The notes below the pieces were generated by a model. That model was not told where the DNA came from and searched no databases. It was given only the letters and a program-made list of their open reading frames with translations. From a virus, in the IMG/VR virus record IMGVR_UViG_3300001533_000601, positions 551 to 21,459 of that record: a stretch of 20,909 nucleotides of DNA. One strand, given 5' to 3'. A program made the translations under genes and the position numbers. The first letter of the stretch is position 1; each line of letters starts with the position of its first letter. Positions 1 to 20,909 of the stretch are shown here, piece after piece.

Positions 1-73
1 GGAAAGTAAGACTTGTTCCAAGGATTTATCTTTGAAACAAGCAATTCCAAGTGATCTGTTGAGGTTTCTATGA
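1..73 (+). CDS. tnpB: TnpB (IS200/IS605 family) C-terminal end, partial
   Basis: Read from base 2, this is the last 23 codons of a gene that begins before the window and ends at TGA 71-73. The visible protein ends in SDLLRFL. It is identified through the second copy at 20735-20806, which is preceded by a segment reading LNAAINIKAVG, the conserved end of the TnpB zinc-ribbon/RuvC region. TnpB is an RNA-guided nuclease carried by IS200/IS605 transposons. The two copies align over 87 nt without gaps and with five mismatches: Leu/Ile, three synonymous changes and TGA versus TAA. That pattern fits coding sequence. Whether the upstream part is intact cannot be seen. Confidence 0.65.
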   Translation, partial: ESKTCSKDLSLKQAIPSDLLRFL

Positions 74-95
74 TTTACCATAGAAACTGTGACTA
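1..95 (+). mobile_element. Right end of an IS200/IS605-type element, copy A
   Basis: The tnpB 3' end runs into a hairpin with an 8-bp perfect stem (64-71 GTTTCTAT, 80-87 ATAGAAAC) and an 8-nt loop. Its first arm overlaps the tnpB stop. A subterminal hairpin just after tnpB is typical of IS605-type right ends and of the omega-RNA scaffold. Similarity to copy B stops at about 87, so the element boundary, and the start of any guide segment, should lie near 88-95. The left end is outside the window. Confidence 0.55.
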
Positions 96-807: not shown

Positions 808-1122
808 ATGAGATTAATAGACGAATTAGCAAAATTTGAATCTAAAATAACAAAAGATGATGGAAATAATAACGAATCTGCTTCTACGGATCAACTATAA
901 GACTTTACGGAAGCAGGATTAGTAATAGAAAAAGGTTTTACTGTGGATGATGCCGATCCCAAAGAATTAGAAATGGGACGTAAAGTTGAAATGGAACATA
1001 CCATTAATCCTAATTTTGCTAAAAGAATAGCATTAGATCACCTGGCCGAAATACCAGATTATTACACTCGTTTGATTGCTATGGAAAATGAAGCAAAAGG
1101 AGAGAATAAATTTAAGGATTAA
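808..1122 (+). pseudogene. DUF5661-like protein with an in-frame TAA
   Basis: From ATG 808 the frame reads 30 codons to TAA 898-900, then continues open in the same frame to TAA 1120-1122. The second part contains MGRKVEMEHT and ALDHLAEIPDYYTRLIAME, which resemble the conserved core of DUF5661-type proteins (function unknown) found in phages and bacteria. The first part begins MRLIDELAKFES, a credible N-terminus, so this looks like one roughly 104-residue gene split by a nonsense codon. No good ribosome site precedes an internal start. It could be a real mutation, a sequencing error, or a functional core started internally. The family name is from memory of its motif. Confidence 0.6.
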
Positions 1123-1151
1123 TATTTTAAAATAGACGAGATATGAAAATT

Positions 1152-1185
1152 AATTTGAGGACACCATTTTTGATGTCCTCAAATT
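1152..1185 (+). terminator. Hairpin, probable terminator after the DUF5661-like gene
   Basis: There is a 12-bp perfect stem: AATTTGAGGACA at 1152-1163 pairs with TGTCCTCAAATT at 1174-1185, with a 10-nt loop. It is followed by AT-rich sequence, not a clean T run, and directly by a late promoter. It separates two transcription units, but its strength is uncertain. Confidence 0.6.
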
Positions 1186-1187
1186 TA

Positions 1188-1195
1188 TATAAATA
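1188..1195 (+). promoter_or_regulatory. T4-type late promoter core
   Basis: Exact TATAAATA abutting the preceding hairpin and 40 nt before ATG 1236. It would drive the 1236-3532 cluster. Confidence 0.75.
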
Positions 1196-1235
1196 AAAGA
1201 GAGATACTGTATCGAATTTTTACAGGAGAATTTAA

Positions 1236-1658
1236 ATGGAAATTAATGACAAATTATTTGAAAACATCATTGTTGTGGGTCGTTCAGACGATAAATCTAC
1301 AATTTTTGATGAAATTGCTGATCAAGAAGCTAAAATGGCGGAGAATAAAGATTTGTATGATGCACACGATAAGATCACGAAAGTATATGGTCAATTGTTT
1401 AGAAATGGTGAAATTCAGACTATGGCCCCATCAATTGATGTTAACAAAGGTGTTCTTAGAATTGATGGCGTGACAAAAGACGATGTAGCATCGGATGTGT
1501 CAAAATACACACCTGATGAAGTGGTAGACATGTTCACTGCTCAATTAGCTAAAGTTATACCCGACAATTTAGAAGTTACTTTTGAAACCGCAACAGGTGA
1601 TCAGATTCCTAAGATGGGTAAACAAAGATTTACTATTCTTATAAATAGAAAGGGATAA
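1236..1658 (+). CDS. Unrecognised phage protein, 140 aa
   Basis: First gene of a late cluster. AGGAGA at 1224-1229 lies 6 nt before the ATG. The protein is mixed alpha/beta in character and has no motif I can name. The segment VSKYTPDEVVDMFTAQLAKV suggests a helix, and the end (RFTILINRKG) looks like a beta strand with a basic tip. It sits upstream of several probable virion genes and is separated by only a few bases from the next gene, so a structural or assembly role is likely but inferred from context only. Confidence 0.75.
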   Translation: MEINDKLFENIIVVGRSDDKSTIFDEIADQEAKMAENKDLYDAHDKITKVYGQLFRNGEIQTMAPSIDVNKGVLRIDGVTKDDVASDVSKYTPDEVVDMFTAQLAKVIPDNLEVTFETATGDQIPKMGKQRFTILINRKG

Positions 1659-1662
1659 TATT

Positions 1663-2046
1663 ATGCCTGAAAAGATTAAGGGTAGCCCTATAGAAATTAT
1701 GAAGGCTATTTCTATGTTTGACATAGAAACAGATTATAATGACACACAAGCTAAAGAAAAACTAGATATCCTATTCCACAATTTAATAATTAGTAAAGAT
1801 CCTAAAGCAAAAGAATTTTTAGCAAGATTTTTAAAGGGTGTTTCTAATATTATTGCGGATATGGGTATTATAGAAAGACCAGAAGAAGAACCCGTTGACG
1901 ATGTAGAGATGCCTGATGAGGCTCCCGAAGAGACTACGGAGGAGAAGCCTACGGAAGAACCTATTGAAGATGAAGTACCTGATGAACTACTCGGTGCGGG
2001 ATATAATAGATTAATTACACATGCTAATAGTTTTTTATATTCATAA
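1663..2046 (+). CDS. Unrecognised protein with Glu/Pro-rich tail, 127 aa
   Basis: Residues 1-70 look helical. Residues about 71-110 are a Glu/Pro/Asp-rich linker, followed by a short hydrophobic-aromatic end. It starts 4 nt after the previous stop, with AGGG at 1651-1654 as a weak ribosome site, so coupled translation is likely. An open frame on the opposite strand here is serine-rich and is simply the complement of the Glu-rich codons. No function can be assigned. Confidence 0.75.
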   Translation: MPEKIKGSPIEIMKAISMFDIETDYNDTQAKEKLDILFHNLIISKDPKAKEFLARFLKGVSNIIADMGIIERPEEEPVDDVEMPDEAPEETTEEKPTEEPIEDEVPDELLGAGYNRLITHANSFLYS

Positions 2047-2058
2047 GGAGAGAAATTT

Positions 2059-2553
2059 ATGAGTACGTTCATGACTTTTTTAGATAATATAGATAATGAT
2101 ATTATAAATGAAACATATGTAGATGACACTATTGTTGAAAAGGTAGAATCAAAACCACAATTAAAGAAAAAAGTGGTTACGAAAAAACCTATTACCGTAA
2201 AGAAGGATTCCTCTATTAAACTTATAGAGGCTCGTATTCGTACAAAGTTAGATTCTATCGGACTTAACGAATCCGCTATTAATGATGTTGTTACTTTTGT
2301 ACTATATGATATACAAAAGATTAAAGATGTTGAAAGTTCATCGACATCTCCGACATCAAAAGCTCCTACTCAAACAAAAATAACTGTTCAAGAAAATAAA
2401 AAATTGAATACTGTAAGAGGTAGAGCGGAAAGTCTTTTAGAAGGTTTAATAGATACACCGACATTTGTACCACTTCCTACATATGGTAGTGGAGATGTTG
2501 TTGCGGAATCTAATTTTAGTAATGTCGCAGATCGTGCATCTTCATTGTTATAA
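2059..2553 (+). CDS. Unrecognised protein, 164 aa
   Basis: AAGGAG at 2045-2050 precedes the ATG at a normal distance. Residues about 30-55 are Lys-rich (KKKVVTKKPITVKKD). The middle (KLIEARIRTKLDSIGLNES) looks helical, and the C-terminal third is low-complexity Ser/Thr/Pro. The composition suggests a flexible, possibly virion-associated protein. It lies 11 nt before the next gene in the same cluster. Confidence 0.72.
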   Translation: MSTFMTFLDNIDNDIINETYVDDTIVEKVESKPQLKKKVVTKKPITVKKDSSIKLIEARIRTKLDSIGLNESAINDVVTFVLYDIQKIKDVESSSTSPTSKAPTQTKITVQENKKLNTVRGRAESLLEGLIDTPTFVPLPTYGSGDVVAESNFSNVADRASSLL

Positions 2554-2564
2554 GGGAGGTTTAA

Positions 2565-3065
2565 ATGGCAAGTTATATATTTGACCATGTGAAAGAATTG
2601 ATAGCTACACAATCTATCAACTTAGTTCCTAACGACGATAATGTTTATAAAGTTGTGCTTGTTTCCGCTGATGCGTTGAACGGTACAACATATAGTAAAG
2701 AAACATATTGGTTAGATAAGTTATCGAAATTTGAAATTACCGAAGTTGATGATTATAATAATATCGGATATGAACCAAAATATCTTAAGGATGTCGGAAT
2801 AGAGACTATTTCTGATGCGGGAGGATCATGTAATGATGGTTTGCCTGATAAAAGTATATATGCTAATAATGTTGTGTATAATGTATCAACCATTGATGCT
2901 GATGGAGCAATAATTTTATATTCAATACCGGATAATAGTGAAGACTATTATCCGATTGCTGCACTAGATCTTCGATCTGATGGAGCAACAACAGTACAAT
3001 CTAATAATGGTACATTTAAATTATTATTAAATAGTGAAAATGGTGGATTTTTAACGATAAAATAA
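2565..3065 (+). CDS. Putative virion structural protein, 166 aa
   Basis: A strong GGGAGG at 2554-2559 sits 5 nt before the ATG. The sequence is beta-rich: MASYIFDHVKELIATQSINL at the start, VYKVVLVSADAL near residue 28, and an end (FKLLLNSENGGFLTIK) that resembles the end of the next protein. Size, strand pattern and the tandem arrangement suggest the two are distant paralogues of a small phage virion fold. That relationship is inferred from pattern and not shown by strong identity. Confidence 0.7.
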   Translation: MASYIFDHVKELIATQSINLVPNDDNVYKVVLVSADALNGTTYSKETYWLDKLSKFEITEVDDYNNIGYEPKYLKDVGIETISDAGGSCNDGLPDKSIYANNVVYNVSTIDADGAIILYSIPDNSEDYYPIAALDLRSDGATTVQSNNGTFKLLLNSENGGFLTIK

Positions 3066-3079
3066 TAGCGAGGTGCTAA

Positions 3080-3532
3080 ATGGCAGATGTGATTCCAACT
3101 ATCTTTTTAAAAGATCAAGCGGAAAAGAAAATTGATTTTGCTAATGACAGTATGAAAATAGCACTTCTTACGGGAACATATAATGTGTGTACTCTTAGAG
3201 AAACAACTTCATTTGATGAAATATCCTCTAATGAAGTCGCATCATTATATGGATATCCATTAGGAGGTTTTCCTATTGGGGGAAAGACCGTTACTGTTAA
3301 TACGGATGAGGATAGCATCGTATATAATATGAACGATGTGGGGATGACGGTAGCGGGAGGAACATTTGGTCCCGTTAGATATGGTGTGCTATACGATACA
3401 TCTAATAATAATCATCTAGTGTATGTCTTTGACTTTGGAGAAGATAAAACTGTTAATGATGGTGCTCAATTTAAAATACAAATAGATGATAATGGTTTGA
3501 TGAAAGCAAGACAAACTACAATTAGTAGTTAA
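3080..3532 (+). CDS. Putative phage virion protein, 150 aa
   Basis: The sequence follows a widespread small virion protein pattern. An N-terminal helix is followed by a strand with MKIALLTGTYN, then EISSNEVASLYGYPLGG, a glycine-rich turn with KTVTVNTDE, GPVRYGVLYD, and LVYVFDFGEDKTVNDGAQF with a final strand. Such proteins occur among tail, neck or decoration genes of many phages. GAGGTG at 3070-3075 gives a 4-nt spacing. A hairpin follows the stop, so this is probably the last gene of its cluster. The exact position in the particle is unknown. Confidence 0.75.
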   Translation: MADVIPTIFLKDQAEKKIDFANDSMKIALLTGTYNVCTLRETTSFDEISSNEVASLYGYPLGGFPIGGKTVTVNTDEDSIVYNMNDVGMTVAGGTFGPVRYGVLYDTSNNNHLVYVFDFGEDKTVNDGAQFKIQIDDNGLMKARQTTISS

Positions 3533-6126: not shown

Positions 6127-6363
6127 TTGAATATTAAAAAAAATAATTCTTTGGAAAATATTTTAGGATGTAGTGTTGAACAATTACAAAAACATCTTAA
6201 TACCACGTTTATTAATAACTATGATAATAATGATGAGTTACATATAGACCATATCATACCAATATCAAAGGCTACGACTATAGATGAAGTTTATGAATTA
6301 AATAATTATACTAATCTTCAATATCTATTAGCTAAAGATAATCTTATTAAAGGGGTAAAATAA
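6127..6363 (+). CDS. HNH homing endonuclease, 78 aa
   Basis: This small HNH nuclease is of the phage homing type. LGCSVEQLQKHL leads into the catalytic block ELHIDHIIPISKA (His-x-Asp-His), followed by LNNYTNLQYLLAKDNLIKG with the conserved Asn and Lys of the ββα-metal fold. No zinc-binding Cys pairs are seen. The frame starts with TTG at 6127, with AGGA at 6116-6119 seven bases upstream. It lies between two paralogous fibre genes, and its stop overlaps the ATG of the next gene (TAATG). Such enzymes cut a related allele and drive gene conversion of the flanking sequence. The cleavage site is not evident. Confidence 0.85.
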   Translation: MNIKKNNSLENILGCSVEQLQKHLNTTFINNYDNNDELHIDHIIPISKATTIDEVYELNNYTNLQYLLAKDNLIKGVK

Positions 6364-6623: not shown

Positions 6624-7431
6624 TACACAATCTTCTCTTGATTTAAAAGCGGATTCAACGGATTTAAATGATTATGTGTTGTCTGCAGATTTTAATACTC
6701 ACGAAATAGATACAACTATTCATTTCACTATAGATGAAATTGATGGTTTAGTTACCTCTGCGGGTACTAATGGTCAAGTGTTGATGAAGAACTCTAATGA
6801 TGATTATGATTATGATTGGCAAACTCTACTTGGTGGTGGAGATATGCTTAAAGCAACATATGATACAAATGATGATGGTACTGTTAATCAGTCGGACAAT
6901 GCATTAGCTCTTGGTGGAGAATTGCCAGGATACTATGCTACATCGGCAAATCTAGAAGATTATAATAATCCTCACCAAGTGGATAAAACTGATGTCGGTT
7001 TGAGTGCGGTAGATAATACATCTGACTTAGATAAGCCGATTTCAACCGCAACACAAATAGCTCTTGATTTAAAAGCGGATTCAACCGATTTAAATGATTA
7101 TACATTAAGTGTGGATTTTAATGCACATGAAACAAGTGCATCAATTCACTTCACCGAGGCATCTATTGATCATGGAAACATTCAAGGTCTTTTAGATAAC
7201 GACCATCCTCAATACGCAACTTCTGCTAATTTGGATGCTCATACAAGTGATTCAACAATTCATTTTACGGAAGCGTCTTTAGATTTAAATCAATATGCGA
7301 CTTCAGCTAACTTAGATACTCATACAAGTGATTCAACAATTCACTTTACGGAAGCAAGTATTGATCATGGTAGTATTTCTGGATTGTTAGATAATGACCA
7401 TCCTCAATATGCTACTTTCTCATACAAGTGA
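6553..7431 (+). CDS. Fibre shaft fragment, 292 aa
   Basis: Middle part of the broken fibre gene, starting at GTG 6553 and open back to 6529. It has two near-identical modules (HQVDKTDVGLSAVDNTSDLD, at 6550 and again at 6976), a segment with TNGQVLMKNSNDDYDYDW, then HTSDSTIHFTEAS-type repeats. It ends in TGA after the 14-base loss near 7415-7420. The GTG has no convincing ribosome site, so independent translation is doubtful. Confidence 0.5.
   Translation: MDKTDVGLSAVDNTSDLDKPISTATQSSLDLKADSTDLNDYVLSADFNTHEIDTTIHFTIDEIDGLVTSAGTNGQVLMKNSNDDYDYDWQTLLGGGDMLKATYDTNDDGTVNQSDNALALGGELPGYYATSANLEDYNNPHQVDKTDVGLSAVDNTSDLDKPISTATQIALDLKADSTDLNDYTLSVDFNAHETSASIHFTEASIDHGNIQGLLDNDHPQYATSANLDAHTSDSTIHFTEASLDLNQYATSANLDTHTSDSTIHFTEASIDHGSISGLLDNDHPQYATFSYK
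6954..7049 (+). repeat. 96-bp direct repeat in the fibre gene, copy 2
   Basis: Second copy of the repeat at 6528-6623. It begins AGAAGATTATAATAATCC, and similarity weakens after CAACCGC. Confidence 0.85.
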
Positions 7432-7909
7432 TTCAACAATTCACTTTACGGAAGAATCATTAGATTTACAACAATATGCTACTTCTGCAAATCTTGATAC
7501 TCATACAAGTGATTCAACAATTCACTTTACTGAAGAATCATTAGATTTACAACAATACGCTACTTCTGCAAATCTTGATACGCATACAAGTGATTCAACA
7601 ATTCACTTTACGGAAGAATCATTAGATTTACAACAATATGCTACTTCTGCAAATATGCTCATACAAGTGATTCTACAATTCACTTTACGGAAGAATCATT
7701 AGATTTACAACAATATGCTACTTCTGCAAATTTTGATACTCATACAAGTGATTCTACAATTCACTTTACGGAAGAATCATTAGATTTAAATCAATATGCA
7801 ACTTCTGCAAATCTTGATACACATACAAGTGATTCAACAATTCACTTTACGGAAGCAAGTATTGATCATGGTAGTATTTCTGGATTGTTAGATAATGACC
7901 ATCCTCAAT
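7240..7909 (+). repeat. Tandem repeat array, 81-bp unit, in the fibre shaft
   Basis: Units beginning CATACAAGTGATTC start at 7240, 7321, 7421, 7502, 7583, 7660, 7741 and 7822. Most spacings are 81 bases (27 residues). The spacing of 100 contains an extra IDHGSISGLLDNDHPQ module less 14 bases, and the spacing of 77 lacks 4 bases. The 88 bases at 7321-7408 recur exactly at 7822-7909. Confidence 0.9.
7394..7702 (+). CDS. Fibre repeat fragment, 102 aa
   Basis: Consists almost entirely of the 27-residue repeat HTSDSTIHFTEESLDLQQYA with a TSANLDT tail, about three times. It is in its repeat frame only from about 7421 to 7655. The ATG used lies out of the repeat frame of the preceding piece, so this is a fragment of the broken gene and not a separate protein. 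Confidence 0.3.
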   Translation: MTILNMLLSHTSDSTIHFTEESLDLQQYATSANLDTHTSDSTIHFTEESLDLQQYATSANLDTHTSDSTIHFTEESLDLQQYATSANMLIQVILQFTLRKNH

Positions 7910-7973
7910 TTCGTTAAGTGCGGATGTTGTATTAAAAACTCTTTATGATTCAAATACTATAGTTGCTGCTACA

Positions 7974-20201: not shown

Positions 20202-20231
20202 TAATGAATGAATTAGCAAATAGAGGTAATT

Positions 20232-20594
20232 ATGTTTTTAGGTAGACCAAATTTAAGAGGCGAGGATGAACAATATGAGTTCACCGAAGAACTCTTAGAG
20301 GAATATTTTAAGTGTGCAGAAGATATAGTGTATTTTGCTGAAAAATACTTTTATATAGTTAATATTGACGAGGGAAAACATAAAATAAAATTATATGATT
20401 TTCAGAAAAAATCCCTTAAAGTTTTTACATCTAATTCCGTAAATGGTAAGAAAAATACAATAGTCCTTATGCCAAGACAAATGGGTAAGTGTCTTTTTAA
20501 AGACTCAAAAATAACTATTCGTAATAAAAAAACAGGAGAAATTAAGAAAATATCAATAGAGGATATATATCATATGGCACGGCAAATAGGATAA
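20232..20594 (+). CDS. 17: Large terminase N-terminal piece fused to split-intein N half
   Basis: The first 86 residues match the start of T4 gp17. A helix with CAEDIVYFAEKYFYIVNID leads to LYDFQKKSLKVF (adenine-binding region) and NTIVLMPRQMGK, the Walker A motif (compare SRQLGKTT in T4). Directly after the Walker A Lys comes Cys87 and a 34-residue segment, CLFKDSKITIRNKKTGEIKK then ISIEDIYHMARQIG, ending at TAA. This has the block-A pattern of an intein N-terminus and no further ATPase sequence. GAGG at 20223-20226 precedes the ATG. The product needs a partner carrying the C half of the intein and of the terminase to give an active motor. Confidence 0.85.
   Translation: MFLGRPNLRGEDEQYEFTEELLEEYFKCAEDIVYFAEKYFYIVNIDEGKHKIKLYDFQKKSLKVFTSNSVNGKKNTIVLMPRQMGKCLFKDSKITIRNKKTGEIKKISIEDIYHMARQIG
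20490..20591 (+). other. Split-intein N-terminal fragment (34 aa)
   Basis: Starts at the Cys codon 20490-20492, just after Walker A GK, a favoured intein site because the next host residue is normally Thr or Ser, a suitable +1 nucleophile. The pattern C-L-x-x-D-S-x-I-T-I with TGEIKKISIEDIY agrees with intein block A and the next strands. The short N half resembles the atypical split intein of an environmental large terminase (AceL-TerL, 25-residue N half). The matching C half is not in this window. Confidence 0.75.
20559..20570 (+). repeat. 12-bp direct repeat GAGGATATATAT, copy 1
   Basis: Encodes EDIY inside the intein N half. The same 12 bases recur at 20845-20856 on the other side of the tnpB remnant, also in a frame reading EDIY. 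Confidence 0.6.
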
Positions 20595-20606: not shown

Positions 20607-20614
20607 TATAAATA
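20607..20614 (+). promoter_or_regulatory. Late promoter core leading into non-coding sequence
   Basis: Exact TATAAATA 13 nt after the terminase stop. No usable open frame follows: the nearest ATGs give 2- and 8-codon frames. A transcript would run through the tnpB remnant and right-end hairpin. Confidence 0.55.
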
Positions 20615-20656: not shown

Positions 20657-20806
20657 TATAAAGAACGATGTAACTTAAATGCCGCTATCAATATCAAAGC
20701 CGTAGGAGTCACTACGGCTCAACAAACAGTGATGGAAAGTAAGACTTGTTCCAAGGATATATCGTTGAAACAAGCAATTCCAAGCGATTTGTTGAGGTTT
20801 CTATAA
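20657..20806 (+). pseudogene. tnpB: tnpB remnant, C-terminal end only
   Basis: An open stretch without a start codon runs from after TAA 20654-20656 to TAA 20804-20806. It contains LNAAINIKAVGVTTAQQTVM, the conserved end of TnpB (DRDxNAAxNI), then 23 codons nearly identical to the window start. Before LNAA the match fades: bases around 20666-20680 would read D-L-N-A if GTAAC (20670-20674) were removed. All catalytic RuvC residues are absent except possibly the decayed last one, so no nuclease can be made from this copy. Confidence 0.7.
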
Positions 20807-20820
20807 TTTACCATAGAAAC
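20698..20820 (+). ncRNA. Candidate solitary omega-RNA scaffold / IS right end, copy B
   Basis: Stems visible by eye: AGCCGTAG/CTACGGCT (20698-20705 with 20712-20719, 6-nt loop), CTTGTT/AACAAG (20745-20750 with 20769-20774) and GTTTCTAT/ATAGAAAC (20797-20804 with 20813-20820). TnpB omega-RNAs come from exactly this region, the tnpB 3' end plus the right end, with the guide just downstream, here from about 20821. The three arms shared with copy A carry no base change that breaks pairing. Whether it is transcribed and bound by a TnpB encoded elsewhere is inference. Confidence 0.45.
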
Positions 20821-20909
20821 AGTAAGACAATAAAAATGTTGTTTGAGGATATATATTGGGTAGGCAATCCTGTCCCTATTAAAAGTTCTATCGTAAGATA
20901 GTCATAGTA
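20821..20909 (+). other. Unassigned sequence after the tnpB remnant
   Basis: Contains copy 2 of the 12-bp repeat (20845-20856), a 21-codon frame from ATG 20836 reading MLFEDIYWVGNPVPIKSSIVR and ending at TAG 20899-20901, and CTATC-GTAA-GATAG (20888-20901), a stem with a GNRA-type loop. No gene can be assigned before the window ends. Confidence 0.4.

What the first reader, a model, noticed from the sequence alone, without database searches (positions are those of the whole stretch)
20232..20594. Large terminase fractured at the Walker A motif by a short split-intein N half
The protein matches gp17 up to MPRQMGK and then switches to a 34-residue sequence starting with Cys and carrying the intein block-A pattern, ending in a stop. 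Seen: the switch point and the stop. Known: inteins favour ATPase P-loops, and fractured genes with split inteins occur in phages, including a terminase intein with a 25-residue N half (AceL-TerL). Inference: packaging here depends on trans-splicing of two gene products, joined inside the ATP-binding loop so neither half is active alone.
Basis: partly seen in the sequence, partly recalled or inferred. Interest (0 to 1): 0.85.

Follow-up and report, generated by a model that had tools for sequence, protein, structure and literature searches.

The report
Phage terminase split by split intein
This T4-like phage makes its DNA-packaging motor as two separate proteins, cut inside the ATP-binding loop, each carrying half of a self-splicing intein that should weld them together; the missing half was found on an overlapping contig, and relatives show the same cut, some with the motor in three pieces.

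Summary
ORF 20232-20594 encodes 86 residues of T4-type TerL (gp17), ending at PRQMGK of Walker A, then a 34-residue intein N part starting with Cys, then stop. The contig ends 315 nt later. The predicted C half exists: an exact 83-nt end overlap leads to IMG/VR contig 3300001533_000682, which opens with a 115-aa intein C part (...GILSHN), then Ser and the rest of gp17. Removing the inteins gives a colinear 509-aa TerL, the same length as an uninterrupted relative. Isolated phages carry both parts as one contiguous intein at the same GK|T site. The C part folds as an intein (pLDDT 92; best PDB match VidaL). About 20 further TerL loci show the same break, several with TerL in three genes. Cultured Vibrio phage vB_VmeM-32 has its halves ~77 kb apart, with no intact TerL found. 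Corrections: AceL/GOS-TerL use Cys+1 and resemble a different TerL site; this TerL also has a cis LAGLIDADG intein; the endonuclease slot between the halves holds a TnpB remnant. Splicing itself is untested. New variant of a known kind.

The parts
20222..20226 (+). AGAGG ribosome-binding site of the TerL N gene
   Evidence: sequence
20232..20489 (+). TerL (gp17) residues 1-86, ending PRQMGK: first half of Walker A, including its lysine
   Evidence: uninterrupted homologues L005, L006
20490..20591 (+). IntN, 34 aa, Cys1, block A
20592..20594 (+). TAA stop ending the N gene
20607..20614 (+). TATAAATA, resembling the T4-type late promoter, between the halves; a candidate promoter for the C gene (function inferred)
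   Evidence: 11 copies on the + strand of the window, about 3.6 expected
20672..20823 (+). remnant of an IS200/IS605-type TnpB element: last 44 codons of tnpB plus the hairpin 3' end, occupying the place where relatives carry a homing-endonuclease gene
   Evidence: 20734-20823 is 93% identical to window 1-90
20827..20909 (+). 83 nt identical to the end of contig L008 (IMGVR_UViG_3300001533_000682), which carries the C half (IntC 115 aa, then Ser and the rest of TerL with a cis intein) beginning about 235 nt beyond the window end

Best explanation
The large terminase of this T4-like phage is a fractured gene. Gene 1 (20232-20594) makes the first 86 residues of gp17 plus a 34-aa IntN. Gene 2, 550 nt downstream on the overlapping contig and with its own ribosome-binding site, makes a 115-aa IntC followed by Ser and the rest of gp17. 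The two intein parts associate into one HINT domain; Cys1, the terminal His-Asn and Ser+1 carry out class-1 trans-splicing, joining PRQMGK to STMSS and rebuilding the P-loop as GKS. The break lies between the catalytic lysine and the Mg-binding Ser/Thr, so neither product should hydrolyse ATP alone. A second, cis LAGLIDADG intein at motif III (VIIVS|TPVG) must leave too. Shown: both genes, junction residues, colinear 509-aa product, fold of IntC, conservation in relatives. Inferred: splicing in the cell, its order, and the inactivity of the halves.
For: N half exact. C half on an overlapping contig with an exact 83-nt overlap, and that contig lacks an N half. Both halves on one contig in about 20 relatives, all broken at reference residue 86|87. 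IntN and IntC align to the two ends of one contiguous intein at the same site in Vibrio phage BX-1; an equivalent insert in Salmonella phage Maynard is annotated as an intein. IntC passes TIGR01443 and its model matches VidaL, gp41-1, CatC and other inteins. Invariant His-Asn, and Ser/Thr at +1. Purifying selection on both parts. Spliced product colinear with uninterrupted TerL. The cultured phage vB_VmeM-32 lives with the two halves as unlinked genes.
Against: No splicing experiment or proteome was available. Window and L008 are separate contigs and could come from two strains of one population. The Thr of the usual block-B TxxH is Ala here (ADxH), and the cis intein ends in Gln rather than Asn; both are departures from the consensus, though neither by itself abolishes known inteins (own knowledge).
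Confidence: 0.92

Rival explanations
1. The intein is a dead remnant: the halves no longer splice, and packaging uses another intact terminase or non-covalent assembly of the two halves.
For: Splicing is untested. Genes in pieces that work as two peptides without ligation are known in phages (a ribonucleotide reductase case cited in PMC10448857).
Against: Catalytic residues are intact and conserved, both intein parts are under purifying selection, and no intact TerL was found in vB_VmeM-32. The break separates Lys from Ser/Thr inside the P-loop, with 34 and 115 extra residues at the break.
Confidence: 0.05
2. RNA-level splicing: a group I or group II intron in the gap joins the two parts, and the intein is one contiguous protein after RNA splicing.
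For: The terL of phage ICP1 is joined by RNA splicing (PMC10448857). The gap RNA is more structured than shuffled sequence (z -4.8).
Against: No Rfam intron match at permissive thresholds. Gaps in relatives are only 47-102 nt in L021, L026, L001 and L019, too short for a group I intron. The structure is accounted for in part by a TnpB-element 3' end. In vB_VmeM-32 the halves are ~77 kb apart on opposite strands.
Confidence: 0.02
3. Sequencing or assembly error: the protein is really one ORF with a contiguous intein.
For: The window ends at a contig edge, and contiguous inteins at this site exist in isolates.
Against: Every forward frame of the 550-nt gap has 13-22 stops. The C half starts with its own ATG and RBS. 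The same split layout recurs on about 20 contigs.
Confidence: 0.01

Closest known systems
AceL-TerL / GOS-TerL / Cat-TerL atypically split inteins
   Same: Split intein in a phage TerL with a very short N part (25-37 aa) and a ~104-115 aa C part (PMC11766414); the CatC structure is among the fold matches of the IntC here.
   Different: They are Cys+1. The L001 second split intein, at QEYN|CKF, matches CatC at 6.7e-8, whereas the Walker A IntC scores only 0.54. The window's intein is at Walker A GK|S with Ser+1.
VidaL intein (PDB 6vgv)
   Same: Best fold match of IntC (E 2.3e-7, TM 0.81, rmsd 1.5 A).
   Different: 28% identity; its native gene and insertion site could not be checked here.
Contiguous TerL mini-inteins of Ackermannviridae-type phages (Maynard, Kuja, BX-1, VPALA)
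   Same: Same GK|T insertion point and homologous over both parts.
   Different: One gene, 159-179 aa, not split.
Fractured genes with split inteins and a free-standing endonuclease (Dassa et al. 2009; cited in PMC6892783, not readable here)
   Same: Two genes carrying complementary intein halves; relatives L003, L014, L017, L020, L024, L027 and L049 hold an endonuclease-type gene in the gap.
   Different: In the window's phage no endonuclease gene is left in the gap; a TnpB remnant is there instead.

Membership tests
Split intein, class 1 | Nucleophile (Cys/Ser) at intein position 1 | tested here: met
   Cys87 of the N gene, Cys in the aligned relatives
Split intein, class 1 | C-terminal His-Asn and Cys/Ser/Thr at +1 | tested here: met
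   GILSHN|S in L008; His-Asn invariant and +1 Ser or Thr in all 28 rows
Split intein, class 1 | Block B histidine | tested here: met
   His51 invariant; the Thr of TxxH is Ala in most rows, a known kind of variation
Split intein, class 1 | HINT fold | tested here: met
   IntC model pLDDT 91.9; PDB matches are inteins, VidaL first
Split intein, class 1 | Two parts encoded by separate genes that together make one intein | tested here: met
Split intein, class 1 | Trans-splicing activity | not testable with these tools
   needs expression or proteomics
AceL/GOS-TerL insertion allele | Cys+1, with sequence similarity to the CatC consensus | tested here: not met
   Ser+1; CatC E 0.54 for this IntC against 6.7e-8 for the second intein of L001. 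The native AceL site itself could not be read
Fractured gene with free-standing homing endonuclease | Endonuclease gene between the halves | tested here: not met
   met in several relatives; in the window's gap no endonuclease ORF or significant profile match
Group I/II intron | Covariance-model match in the gap | tested here: not met

The most novel reading that the evidence does not exclude
A family of short-N split inteins specialised for the GK|S/T junction of phage P-loop ATPases has repeatedly turned the T4-like packaging motor into two or three separately encoded proteins, and lets the gene halves drift to distant genome sites (as in vB_VmeM-32), so that packaging competence depends on one or two trans-splicing reactions and could be timed by when each piece is expressed.
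Probability: 0.35. Interest if true: 0.7.

Novelty: new variant of a known kind. Interest (0 to 1): 0.52.

Why it matters
TerL is an essential motor and a standard marker gene for phage phylogeny, and here it is cut between the catalytic lysine and the Ser/Thr of its P-loop. The intein's need for Ser/Thr at +1 is met by one of the most conserved residues of Walker A, which may explain why the site is reused, also in other ATPases. Three-piece TerLs and a cultured phage with unlinked halves are ready test systems for natural trans-splicing under strong selection, and new short-N split inteins are useful for protein labelling. Annotation pipelines will miss or truncate such TerLs: in vB_VmeM-32 the N half is filed as a hypothetical protein.

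Tried and rejected
Group I/II intron in the gap: no Rfam match. Decayed homing endonuclease in the gap: no significant profile match; the last codons before the IntC start read DCLDFIRG, resembling CLEFIRG at the end of the L014 endonuclease, but this is too short to claim. Targets for the sequences that follow the two TnpB-type 3' ends: no match in any fetched locus. PF03237 on the own record: no hit, as expected with only the N part present. Key papers on AceL/GOS-TerL and on fractured genes are not held, so the native insertion site of AceL-TerL was inferred from Cys+1 and from CatC similarity. No paper describing a TerL cut by two split inteins turned up, but the library is partial. In one search I placed the cis intein's Cys1 in the extein; the alignment exposes the one-residue excess, and the corrected product is 509 aa with a 445-aa cis intein.

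Full report
What is there. The window is bases 551-21459 of a 21,459-bp virus record. Its genes are T4-like: portal gp20 (Pfam Portal_T4, 4.6e-101), prohead protease gp21, major capsid gp23. The last ORF of the structural cluster, 20232-20594, encodes 120 aa. Residues 1-86 are the start of gp17/TerL: PHROG family phrog_5989 matches residues 4-87. Residue 87 begins CLFKDSKITIRNKKTGEIKKISIEDIYHMARQIG, followed by TAA.

The C half. The contig stops 315 nt after the TAA. A 29-nt probe from its end hit one IMG/VR contig, IMGVR_UViG_3300001533_000682. The last 83 bases of the window are identical to one end of that contig. Read in the same direction, that contig opens with a 983-aa ORF: 115 aa of intein C part (MAEVIETLDVDEWEIL...MYDVTVDSESHTLFTNGILSHN), then STMSSVYLLHFMLF..., the rest of gp17, followed by a tail sheath gene. 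The contig holds no N half. The ATG lies 550 nt after the IntN stop, behind AAGAGG, and every forward frame between holds 13-22 stops. So this is not a single-base error.

A second intein in the same protein. Within the C half, at VIIVS|TPVG (the ATPase motif III region), lies a 445-aa insert starting with Cys and ending GHQ, with a LAGLIDADG domain (Pfam LAGLIDADG_3, 9.9e-11). Removing both inteins leaves 509 aa, colinear with the uninterrupted TerLs of L005 (509 aa) and L006 (508 aa) (with the one-residue correction stated under Tried and rejected).

Why it is an intein. Three lines agree. First, the 34-aa tail and the 115-aa head align with residues 1-32 (53% identity) and 68-179 (42%) of one contiguous 179-aa insert in the TerL of Vibrio phage BX-1, at the same GK|T point. 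Kuja, VPALA and Maynard have equivalent inserts, and Maynard's was annotated as an intein by its depositors. Second, IntC exceeds the cut-off of the intein C-terminal model TIGR01443 (21.1 against 15.6 bits). Third, an AlphaFold2 model of IntC (30-row alignment, pLDDT 91.9) matches the VidaL intein first (E 2.3e-7, TM 0.81, rmsd 1.5 A), then other inteins, including the atypically split CatC. His51 of block B, Asp96 of block F and the terminal His-Asn are invariant, and +1 is Ser or Thr in all rows. Both parts are under purifying selection (dN/dS about 0.24 for 28 codons of IntN and 0.20 for IntC against L001; dS is near saturation).

How widespread. Searches of IMG/VR, of GTDB genome contigs and of GenBank phages gave about 20 further TerL loci with the break at residue 86|87 of the reference and both halves on one contig, plus contiguous and uninterrupted forms. 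In L001/L002, L015, L018, L021, L023, L064 and L074 the downstream part is broken again, near residue 271, before a C-x-F stretch following QEY in L001, so TerL is in three genes. The second intein of L001 is the one that matches CatC, the consensus of AceL/GOS-TerL (6.7e-8; only 0.54 for the Walker A IntC), and AceL/GOS-TerL are Cys+1 (PMC11766414). Other loci put a homologous IntC on AAA ATPases (L038, L045, L048, and the similar L035), on a protein that I read as gp46/SbcC-like (L037) and on a DnaB-like helicase (L047). In L035 and L038 the break is again GK|T.

A cultured example. Vibrio phage vB_VmeM-32 (KU160494) has the N half as VmeM32_00107 (79947-80624, minus; LSRQLGK|CVTGDTKITVRNK) near gp16, and the C half as VmeM32_00001 (1102-3216, plus) next to gp18. 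The halves are about 77 kb apart on opposite strands, and searches of the whole record with either half found no intact TerL. The main text of the paper on this phage does not contain the word intein (PMC6483233). A viable phage with only these halves is the best indirect evidence that this family splices.

The gap. Relatives hold a free-standing, zinc-finger, endonuclease-type gene there (L003, L014, L017, L020, L024, L027, L049), and L001 and L019 keep only its tail (1.8e-9 and 4.5e-13). In the window's phage the gap instead contains the last 44 codons and the hairpin end of an IS200/IS605-type TnpB element: 20734-20823 is 93% identical to window 1-90, which follows a tnpB gene at the start of the record (Pfam 1.2e-20 and 5.8e-21). 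The gap RNA is strongly structured (z = -4.8). A sequence resembling the T4 late promoter, TATAAATA, lies at 20607.

Mechanism and limits. Shown by sequence: two genes, matching halves, correct nucleophiles, colinear product. Inferred: that the halves meet and splice in the infected cell, that neither half is active alone (the Walker A lysine is on one and the Ser/Thr on the other), and that the C half has its own late promoter. Not excluded: that the window and L008 represent two strains of one population.

Verdict. The kind of system is known (split-intein-fractured phage genes, TerL included). The Walker A site with Ser/Thr+1, the combination with a cis intein, the three-piece TerLs and the unlinked halves in an isolate make it a new variant.

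Noticed in passing
KU160494 1102-3216 (+) and 79947-80624 (-): Vibrio phage vB_VmeM-32: TerL halves as two unlinked genes on opposite strands, the N half filed as hypothetical protein; its C half also holds a cis mini-intein after the Walker B motif (DE|C...HN|CAF).
   Followed up: yes
L062 1-585 (record G000:C1:1-585), window 1-90 and 20672-20823: An IS200/IS605-type tnpB gene that appears frameshifted, with a structured 3' end at window 1-90, and a tnpB-less second copy of that end in the gap between the terL halves.
   Followed up: partly
L035, L037, L038, L045, L047, L048: A homologous intein C part sits on other phage ATPases (AAA, gp46-like, DnaB-like), again at or near the P-loop.
   Followed up: partly
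L001 8821-9804; L021 4533-5540; L015 2752-3783: At the second TerL break the gap carries a different endonuclease-type gene (DUF7487 / PHROG homing endonuclease) from the one at Walker A.
   Followed up: partly
L055 3001-4398 (Synechococcus phage B23): TerL has a large insert resembling a LAGLIDADG intein at the same GK|T site that starts with Ala instead of Cys, as class 2 inteins do.
   Followed up: no
L017 5311-5994, L016 1362-2054, L056 2393-2983, L050 3186-3671: A short extra TerL ATPase-like ORF next to terL, possibly a degenerate paralogue (gp17.2 in the annotation of phiM12).
   Followed up: no
window 7157-7936: Tandem ~81-nt repeats within fibre-like ORFs (THTSDSTIHFTEESLDLQQYATSANLD), with frame changes between neighbouring ORFs.
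   Followed up: no
window 6127-6363: Short ORF with a sub-threshold HNH endonuclease match (E 0.003), possibly a truncated homing endonuclease next to the fibre-like genes.
   Followed up: no
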